This document shows positions 6,592-36,614 of a stretch of DNA of 48,103 nucleotides, piece by piece. Both the position numbers and the translations under genes were made by a program. Below the pieces are notes generated by a model. That model ran no database searches and had not been told where the DNA came from. It worked only from the letters and a program-made list of their open reading frames with translations. Within the stretch, counting starts at the first letter, position 1. Every line of letters begins with the position of its first letter. The stretch covers positions 1 through 48,103 of the IMG/VR virus record IMGVR_UViG_3300046520_000148; one strand, 5' to 3'. Source of the DNA: a virus.

Positions 6592-6620
6592 ACTATCACG
6601 CATCGTGTTTATTTCGTCAA
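6592..6620 (-). promoter_or_regulatory. Leftward early promoter (PL-like)
   Basis: On the minus strand, TTGACG (6620-6615, five of six to consensus) is followed by exactly 17 bases and GATAGT (6597-6592, four of six). It reads toward the recombination operon. A 15-bp palindrome overlaps its spacer and -10, and a second lies against its -35, the arrangement expected of a repressor-controlled early promoter. Confidence 0.7.
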
Positions 6621-6633: not shown

Positions 6634-6705
6634 TTATTTTTTGTGAGTTAACACGCCTTTCATCGCTTACGTTTTTCGGATTGGTGGGCTATGATCGAAG
6701 AATAA

Positions 6706-6721
6706 CTGGATACATATACAG
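6706..6721. promoter_or_regulatory. LexA-type SOS box
   Basis: CTGGATACATATACAG fits the CTG-N10-CAG form with an AT-rich core. It lies 16 bases before the start of the DUF1654 gene, and a possible -10 (TATGAT, 6690-6695) sits just upstream, so LexA would cover the transcription start. This suggests DNA-damage control of the gene. Confidence 0.7.
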
Positions 6722-6737
6722 TGGTTAGGGAAGCGGA

Positions 6738-7055
6738 ATGGCAAAGGCAAAGAAGCAGGAAAAACCAGCAGAACGGAAAGAAGTTAGCGGTGTAGAGCGG
6801 CTGGTGCTGCGGGTGTCATCGATGATTAATCACCACGTCGCGCAAGCTCAGCGCTGGGTGACGATTCACCGCCTGGACACGGATGGGGATCGAGAGTGGG
6901 AGGAGGTGATGGGCGTGCTATCCGAGACGGACGGCATAGACATGACGTTCAACGACGATGAGTCGGTGACGCTGAAGTGGGAGGCGAGTGCCGAGGAAGA
7001 TCGGGTGGAGGAGGTCAATAGCATGGAAGCGGTGGAGGAGGTCGCGCCTTTCTGA
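6738..7055 (+). CDS. DUF1654-domain protein, probably SOS-induced
   Basis: 105 residues from ATG at 6738 after AGGGAAG. The segment VERLVLRVSSMINHHVAQAQRWVTIHRLDTDGDREWEEVMGVLSETDGIDMTFNDDESVTLKW matches my memory of the DUF1654 family, common in Pseudomonas and its phages; its function is not known. The N-terminus is lysine-rich and the C-terminus acidic. It is a single rightward gene in a leftward region, has a LexA-type box before it, and is isolated from its neighbours by terminator-like hairpins. That makes it a candidate induction factor, though this is inference. Confidence 0.75.
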   Translation: MAKAKKQEKPAERKEVSGVERLVLRVSSMINHHVAQAQRWVTIHRLDTDGDREWEEVMGVLSETDGIDMTFNDDESVTLKWEASAEEDRVEEVNSMEAVEEVAPF

Positions 7056-7061
7056 AAGCCA

Positions 7062-7088
7062 AAAAAATGGCCCGCGTGCGGGCGGGCC
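7062..7088 (-). terminator. Leftward rho-independent terminator
   Basis: Read on the minus strand, a stem of GGCCCGC (7082-7088 against 7069-7075) with a six-base loop is followed by seven T bases (7067-7061, ending ATTTTTTT). It would stop leftward transcripts from the repressor operon before they reach the SOS-box gene. Confidence 0.65.
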
Positions 7089-8880: not shown

Positions 8881-9705
8881 TTACACCAAGTGAGCGTTCC
8901 ACACCAGCAGCACGCGCGCCAGAATGTGCGTGTCGTCACGTCTTATCCGCTTTGGTGTATGCCGTGCGTTATCTGAAATGATCTCAAAATTATCAGCGTC
9001 AGCGACCTGCATACGCTTGATGTACAGCAGGTCATCCCACGAATACAGATAGATGCCGTCACCAATGAAGTCCCGGATGCTGATATCTACGATCAGCGGG
9101 TCTCGGTGCTTGATGGTTGGCTCCATCGACTGTCCCCAGCCAGTGACAAGCTTGAGGTAGTTGTAATCCTCGTATTCAACGCCCAGCTCGCGAAGGTGCT
9201 TTTGGCTAACGCGAATGTCCTTCAGCATCTCAGGGAAGTCCGCTGCCTTTTGTCCATCACCCATGGCCCCACGAATGTCGTAGTGCGCGATCCTGATTTC
9301 GTCGCCGACAAGGCCGGGGCGGGAGAAGTCAGCAGTGATGACGTTGTTCGAGACAACCACCACAGTATCCTGCACTGCATCCGAGATTTTCTGCCGAACA
9401 TCCACGGGTAAGTTTTTACCGTGCTTCATCAGCATTTGCCGAACGAGATCGGCAGAGGACAATGACTGCTGTTCCTGAGCAACCTTCTCTGGCTTCGAAA
9501 CTCGGTGGCCTATCAATAGATCGGATTCCTCCACGCTGAGTGCTGCTGCCATCGCGGTTATGTCGGCAAAGGTTGGCTCGCGAGTACCTGCCTCGTAATT
9601 CCCCACGCGTGACTGCGATTTCCACCCACAAGCTTCCGCCAGCTGAGCCTGGGACATTCCTGCTTTCTTTCTTGCGCGCTTGATGCGCTCAGCTAATTCG
9701 TTCAT
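8881..9705 (-). CDS. CI-like prophage repressor (XRE HTH plus S24 peptidase domain)
   Basis: 274 residues. An N-terminal helix-turn-helix (about 17-45, MSQAQLAEACGW...SRVGNYEAG) is joined by a linker to a LexA/S24 domain with nucleophile Ser193 in GWGQSMEPT and general base Lys230 in LLYIKRMQ. The family represses early promoters and self-cleaves when RecA is activated. The usual Ala-Gly cleavage pair is not obvious; the expected position reads RGAMGDG (146-152). ATG at 9703-9705 has only a weak ribosome site. It is divergent from the Cro-like gene, with operator palindromes between them. Confidence 0.93.
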   Translation of the reverse strand: MNELAERIKRARKKAGMSQAQLAEACGWKSQSRVGNYEAGTREPTFADITAMAAALSVEESDLLIGHRVSKPEKVAQEQQSLSSADLVRQMLMKHGKNLPVDVRQKISDAVQDTVVVVSNNVITADFSRPGLVGDEIRIAHYDIRGAMGDGQKAADFPEMLKDIRVSQKHLRELGVEYEDYNYLKLVTGWGQSMEPTIKHRDPLIVDISIRDFIGDGIYLYSWDDLLYIKRMQVADADNFEIISDNARHTPKRIRRDDTHILARVLLVWNAHLV

Positions 9706-36008: not shown

Positions 36009-36154
36009 TTGCCTCTCCTTAGAATTTTGGGGTCAACCTAGCCATATATGGGGAGTGAATTCACTCGATCAACTGTGATTTTGCTCAGGCTGGATTAATG
36101 TCCAGCTATTTAGGGGGAGTCGAAATCAATAGGCAGAGGGAGTTTGGTGTTTGG

Positions 36155-36454: not shown

Positions 36455-36614
36455 GACGGTCCCCGATCCTTTGGACGGTTTGGAGGCAGGAGGCTACTAC
36501 CAGTGTGCAGCAGAGCGTTACTGGCGTTACATCCAAGCTGGATATTTGGCCAGTTCCGGAGTGCTGTGCGGCCTTGGCTGGTGCTACCATCCTGGTCTGC
36601 CTCCCAAGGAATTC

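What the first reader, a model, noticed from the sequence alone, without database searches (positions are those of the whole stretch)
6706..6721. LexA box in front of a DUF1654 gene gives a function clue for this family
CTGGATACATATACAG is a CTG-N10-CAG site with AT-rich core, placed 16 bases before the gene and over a plausible transcription start. The gene stands alone between PL and a leftward terminator. A prophage gene under host LexA control could be an antirepressor or an induction timer parallel to CI cleavage. DUF1654 has no known role.
Basis: partly seen in the sequence, partly recalled or inferred. Interest (0 to 1): 0.74.

Follow-up and report, generated by a model that had tools for sequence, protein, structure and literature searches.

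The report
SOS-controlled prophage gene family (DUF1654)
A small prophage gene of unknown function sits behind a genuine DNA-damage switch (a LexA binding site) that is conserved in nearly every copy of its gene family across Pseudomonas, one copy of which (P. putida PP_3901) is reported to be needed to wake prophages after DNA damage; this turns a 'domain of unknown function' into a testable SOS-response protein.

Summary
Observation confirmed. CTGGATACATATACAG (6706-6721) is the only site in the window within 3 mismatches of the palindromic LexA consensus. It lies 16 bases before a DUF1654 gene (6738-7055, +). The site is conserved across the family: 212 of 221 DUF1654 ORFs score at least 12/16, against 10 of 1,805 control ORFs in the same loci. 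This holds in prophages, a plasmid and chromosomes. Most Pseudomonas genomes carry a chromosomal copy; in many it lies directly before endA (endonuclease I).

'No known role' is not quite right. P. putida PP_3901, located here by its published primers, is a DUF1654 gene behind a LexA box. It is reported to be LexA1- and LexA2-controlled, damage-inducible and required for damage induction of other prophage genes. I found no paper linking this to DUF1654.

New here: the phage lineage carries a disordered acidic linker and a conserved C-terminus E-E-x-A-P-F, resembling the SSB tail (DDDIPF in Pseudomonas).

Best reading: DUF1654 is a Pseudomonas SOS effector family; prophages use it as a LexA-controlled helper of induction, and the phage version may dock on SSB partners. 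Regulation is near certain; the mechanism is inferred. Direct antirepression of CI remains a strong rival.

The parts
6706..6721 (+). LexA operator CTGGATACATATACAG (palindromic SOS box)
6690..6695 (+). -10-like TATGAT; the box starts 16 nt after its start, over the likely transcription start
   Evidence: family peak of TA-N3-T at -16/-15 from the box. The -35 is weak and the generic scan did not report this promoter
6727..6731 (+). AGGGA, likely ribosome-binding site
   Evidence: sequence, (inference)
6738..7055 (+). DUF1654 gene, 105 aa (PF07867, phrog_2707)
7035..7052 (+). codons of the C-terminal peptide EEVAPF, SSB-tail-like
6592..6620 (-). leftward promoter-like TTGACG-17-GATAGT (PL-like)
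   Evidence: consensus match only
7069..7088 (-). leftward intrinsic terminator, just beyond the DUF1654 stop codon
8881..9705 (-). CI-type repressor, HTH + peptidase S24; GQSM and YIKR present, expected cleavage region reads GAMGDG (Met, not Ala or Cys, before Gly)

Best explanation
The site is a working LexA operator and the gene is an SOS gene. In the lysogen, host LexA sits over the transcription start and silences it; after DNA damage RecA-driven LexA cleavage releases it, independently of CI. DUF1654 is a Pseudomonas-lineage SOS effector family: an apparently old chromosomal copy (often followed at once by endA) plus copies on prophages and plasmids. In prophages the protein acts in trans to promote damage-induced prophage expression, as reported for PP_3901. 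Inferred step: the phage-lineage protein pairs a small folded DUF1654 domain with a disordered acidic linker and an E-E-x-A-P-F end that imitates the SSB C-terminal tip, so it docks on host SSB-binding proteins (RecO, RecQ, ExoI, PriA or similar) at damaged or replicating DNA, favouring RecA activation or phage replication over host repair. Shown: operator sequence, family-wide conservation, identity of PP_3901, tail conservation. Reported by others: LexA control and requirement of PP_3901. Inferred: LexA control of the window gene itself (near certain from conservation) and docking on SSB partners.
For: Operator. Family conservation in viral contigs, named phages, plasmid and chromosomes. Pseudomonadaceae-limited: 53/60 genus genomes, 32/100 family draw, 1/369 class draw (that one being the centre genome). 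DNA-metabolism neighbours: Endonuclease I starting 4 nt after the DUF1654 stop in L176, UmuDC divergent in L189. PP_3901 found by two published primers in the KT2440 prophage (L216), PF07867 1.7e-32, LexA box CTGTCTATGCATACAG, HicA neighbour as reported for PP_3900; its phenotype. Tail: 161/176 end in PF; over 82 non-redundant proteins -1 F and -2 P invariant, -3 Ala 77/82, Glu at -5 and -6 about 90%, linker entropy mostly 2.4-3.3 bits, four Pro and two Phe codons used (purifying selection). All 73 ORF segments with such an end among 8,804 in 80 prophage loci are DUF1654. Tail region pLDDT below 60. Host SSBs end DFDSFDDDIPF. The window has no SSB gene of its own.
Against: The tail has Ala where 14 of 14 identified proteobacterial SSBs have Ile. 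Several family members lack the tail: PP_3901 itself, core chromosomal copies, F116, LESphi3, P54, so it cannot be needed for the PP_3901 effect. PP_3901 groups with the chromosomal copies, not the phage clade (support 94/91, long branch), so transfer of its phenotype to the window gene is an extrapolation. No fold match above noise (best PDB E 0.24). No binding or expression data for the window gene.
Confidence: 0.45

Rival explanations
1. LexA-controlled antirepressor in the manner of Gifsy GfoA/GfhA or 186 Tum: the DUF1654 protein binds the conserved C-terminal domain of CI and strips it from its operators, so induction follows LexA rather than CI self-cleavage.
For: LexA box and separate transcription unit in the early left region; CI on the opposite strand, 0.06-5.9 kb downstream, in nearly all phages where it was found. 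PP_3901 is needed for damage induction of other prophage genes. CI C-terminal domains are conserved while HTH domains are swapped between phages, as expected if a shared partner binds that domain. The expected cleavage point reads A-M-G or A-L-G instead of A-G or C-G in essentially all window-type phages, so self-cleavage may be weak. Gifsy antirepressors also act across heteroimmune phages (PMC3121763).
Against: Copies exist on chromosomes with no prophage link and in F116 and LESphi3, whose CI has a canonical Ala-Gly site. The S24 Ser/Lys motifs are intact in the window CI. DUF1654 and CI identities correlate only weakly (rho 0.36), and P54 pairs a related DUF1654 with a lambda-like repressor.
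Confidence: 0.33
2. Host-benefit SOS gene: DUF1654 serves host repair or DNA turnover (with endA, umuDC), and prophages carry spare copies as lysogenic cargo with no effect on induction.
For: Chromosomal copies next to endA or umuDC, high copy number in some genomes (7 matches in G108).
Against: Conserved site in the early left region of prophages, the phage-specific tail under selection, and the reported PP_3901 phenotype.
Confidence: 0.15
3. The C-terminal EExAPF is a protease tag that makes the SOS protein short-lived, not an SSB mimic.
For: Many SOS proteins are unstable (general knowledge); conserved C-terminal residues after a disordered linker fit a tag.
Against: Acidic pair plus terminal Pro-Phe matches the SSB tip more closely than known Lon or ClpXP tags (general knowledge, not tested); core SOS members lack it.
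Confidence: 0.15

Closest known systems
PP_3901 of P. putida KT2440 prophage P1 (LexA1/LexA2-regulated; Abella 2007 as cited in PMC4595014)
   Same: Same Pfam family, LexA box upstream, prophage-borne, small protein
   Different: Tail-less, groups with chromosomal copies, next to hicA; 24% identical to the window protein
Gifsy-1/-3 antirepressors GfoA/GfhA and coliphage 186 Tum
   Same: Small LexA-controlled prophage genes outside the immunity region that couple SOS to induction
   Different: No shared family shown; CI here keeps an S24 domain; binding to the repressor untested
SSB C-terminal tail (SSB-Ct, DDDIPF)
   Same: Acidic residues then Pro-Phe at the very C-terminus after a disordered linker
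   Different: No SSB/OB-fold domain; Ala instead of Ile at -3; Glu pair instead of Asp run
Chromosomal SOS genes of Pseudomonas (recA, lexA, sulA, recN; about 15 genes in P. aeruginosa, PMC13114513)
   Same: CTG-N10-CAG operator overlapping the promoter
   Different: Function of DUF1654 not assigned; whether it is among the listed P. aeruginosa genes was not tested

Membership tests
Pfam DUF1654 (PF07867) | Profile match above the curated cut-off | tested here: met
   78.7 bits against 27
LexA (SOS) regulon | Palindromic CTG-N10-CAG operator with AT-rich core | tested here: met
   14/16 to consensus, only such site in the window
LexA (SOS) regulon | Operator overlaps the promoter and is conserved in orthologues | tested here: met
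LexA (SOS) regulon | LexA binding and DNA-damage induction in vivo | not testable with these tools
   reported for the family member PP_3901 only
LexA-controlled antirepressors (Gifsy/Tum type) | Gene under direct LexA control outside the immunity region | tested here: met
   (operator and position; control itself not measured)
LexA-controlled antirepressors (Gifsy/Tum type) | Cognate repressor not self-cleaved | tested here: inconclusive
   S24 Ser/Lys motifs present but Met in place of Ala/Cys at the expected bond
LexA-controlled antirepressors (Gifsy/Tum type) | Protein binds the repressor and releases it from DNA | not testable with these tools
   no binding assay
SSB-Ct-bearing proteins | C-terminal acidic stretch ending Pro-Phe after a disordered linker, under purifying selection | tested here: met
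SSB-Ct-bearing proteins | Ile at -3 as in proteobacterial SSBs | tested here: not met
   Ala in 77/82; SSBs Ile 14/14
SSB proteins | SSB (OB-fold) domain | tested here: not met
   window protein matches only DUF1654; no PF00436 in the window record

The most novel reading that the evidence does not exclude
Phage-lineage DUF1654 proteins are SOS-triggered mimics of the SSB C-terminal tip: they invade the SSB interaction hub of a damaged Pseudomonas cell and so tune RecA loading, replication restart or nuclease access, coupling host damage to prophage induction without touching CI.
Probability: 0.25. Interest if true: 0.82.

Novelty: new variant of a known kind. Interest (0 to 1): 0.62.

Why it matters
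An unannotated domain family found in most sampled Pseudomonas genomes becomes a predicted SOS family with a conserved LexA operator, an apparent SOS operon with endA, and one member already tied to prophage induction. If the phage version imitates the SSB tail, prophages would have a way to exploit the host's main DNA-repair hub, testable with a short peptide and a two-residue change.

Tried and rejected
CTG-N10-CAG alone as evidence: rejected as near chance. Solved-structure sequence search: nothing. Foldseek against PDB and viral models: no significant match; weak S8/KH-like alpha-beta hits not used. A strict rule that the tail goes with repressors lacking Ala-Gly: rejected, since phi297 and D14H are tail-less yet carry A-M-G. 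Identity of P. aeruginosa PA0922 (a LexA-regulon gene, PMC8944484) with DUF1654: not settled; the P. aeruginosa genome was not examined, and the divergent copies L212/L213 have no DinB-like motif beside them. Abella 2007 could not be read; its result is taken from PMC4595014 and PMC12894663. Tail comparison with SSBs rests on only 14 SSBs that the script could identify.

Full report
Observation. The box CTGGATACATATACAG stands at 6706-6721 exactly as stated. CTG-N10-CAG is common by chance (23 seen, 16.9 expected), but the full palindromic consensus with up to three mismatches finds only this site (0.01 expected). It is 16 nt from the ATG of a 105-aa gene that matches DUF1654 (PF07867) and PHROG 2707 of unknown function. 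A -10-like TATGAT at 6690-6695 puts the box over the likely start point. The window is an IMG/VR virus record.

Is it conserved? All 80 viral-contig homologues (66-91% identical) carry the box close before the start codon. So do nearly all distant phage members (F116, phi297, LESphi3, R656, P54, PotUPM1, AUS531phi), a P. luteola plasmid copy, the bacterial genome loci and almost all chromosomal copies fetched. Counting all 221 ORFs, which are not all independent, 212 have a box of at least 12/16, against 10 of 1,805 other ORFs in the same loci. In 81 prophage loci there is one such box per locus at DUF1654 and only eight others in 1.36 Mb. Exceptions L163, L211 and one L200 copy look truncated or degraded; L215 is divergent.

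What the family is. DUF1654 is found in 53 of 60 genomes drawn from one Pseudomonas genus and 32 of 100 from its family, but, apart from the centre genome, in none of 369 class-level genomes. A short chromosomal form (about 80 aa) often lies just before endA: in L176 Endonuclease I (PF04231) starts 4 nt after the DUF1654 stop and asparaginase lies upstream. Another copy diverges from umuDC (L189), and the plasmid copy is next to a UmuC-type DUF4113 fragment. The family as a whole therefore looks like an SOS gene family, of which prophages carry one branch.

A known phenotype. PMC4595014 describes PP_3901 of the P. putida KT2440 prophage as controlled by LexA1 and LexA2, induced by nalidixic acid and mitomycin C, and required for damage induction of other prophage genes, citing Abella 2007, which could not be read here. 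Both published PP_3901 primers match one prophage contig exactly. The gene there is DUF1654 (1.7e-32) with the box CTGTCTATGCATACAG, next to HicA, as reported for PP_3900. In the open-access library the word DUF1654 occurs in a single paper, a phage genome description that calls the domain uncharacterised, so this link appears unmade there.

The tail. The phage-lineage proteins end in a variable acidic linker and a fixed E-E-x-A-P-F. Over 82 non-redundant sequences the last two residues never change although four proline and two phenylalanine codons are used; the linker varies freely. Of 8,804 ORF segments in 80 prophage loci the only ones with such an end are 73 DUF1654 genes. The predicted structure has a compact helix-helix-strand-helix-strand-strand domain and low-confidence ends. 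Host SSBs end DFDSFDDDIPF. The likeness is real in pattern but not exact: SSBs have Ile where DUF1654 has Ala. The tail appears ancestral to the phage clade and lost in the F116/LESphi3/P54 and phi297 lines (reading of the tree).

Mechanism. LexA control is near certain (about 0.95). That the prophage gene promotes induction is likely by analogy with PP_3901 but is an extrapolation, since PP_3901 lacks the tail and groups with chromosomal copies. For the molecular step two readings compete: docking on SSB partners, favoured by the tail and by neighbours in DNA metabolism, and direct antirepression of CI, favoured by the PP_3901 phenotype, the conserved CI C-terminal domain beneath swapped HTH domains, and the unusual A-M-G at the expected CI cleavage point. 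Neither is shown.

Novelty. LexA-controlled prophage induction factors are known (Gifsy and Tum antirepressors, PMC3121763; PP_3901). What is new here is the family-wide operator, the apparent endA operon, the identification of PP_3901 as DUF1654, and the SSB-like tail.

Noticed in passing
window 8881-9705 and CI genes of L219-L298: CI repressors share one S24 C-terminal domain fused to unrelated HTH domains, and read A-M-G (a few A-L-G) instead of A-G or C-G at the expected cleavage point.
   Followed up: partly
L176 2878-3820 and similar loci L177-L195: Chromosomal DUF1654 and endA (Endonuclease I) look like a two-gene LexA-controlled operon downstream of asparaginase; SOS control of EndA would bear on extracellular DNA turnover.
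   Followed up: partly
L086 3662-3901 (-) and 3995-4309 (+): Phage P54 carries two divergent DUF1654 genes that share a single palindromic LexA box.
   Followed up: no
L216 2646-2891, L084 4664-4957, L085 545-985: Toxin-antitoxin genes (HicA, BrnT, YafO) are neighbours of DUF1654 in three different prophages or phages.
   Followed up: no
L228, L230, L251, L286, about 680-710 nt past the DUF1654 gene: A second LexA-like site, CTGTAAGTATAACCAG, between DUF1654 and CI in four phages.
   Followed up: no
L303: A prophage-encoded SSB whose DDDIPF is internal, followed by APLHHLNGA, so the tip would be masked.
   Followed up: no
L206-L209: A sister group of the phage clade ends SYDDF or CYDDF (or DDY), acidic plus a terminal aromatic without proline.
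   Followed up: no
window 36073-36105 and 36538-36553: Cluster of imperfect CTG-N10-CAG sites (11 of 16 or fewer), not examined.
   Followed up: no
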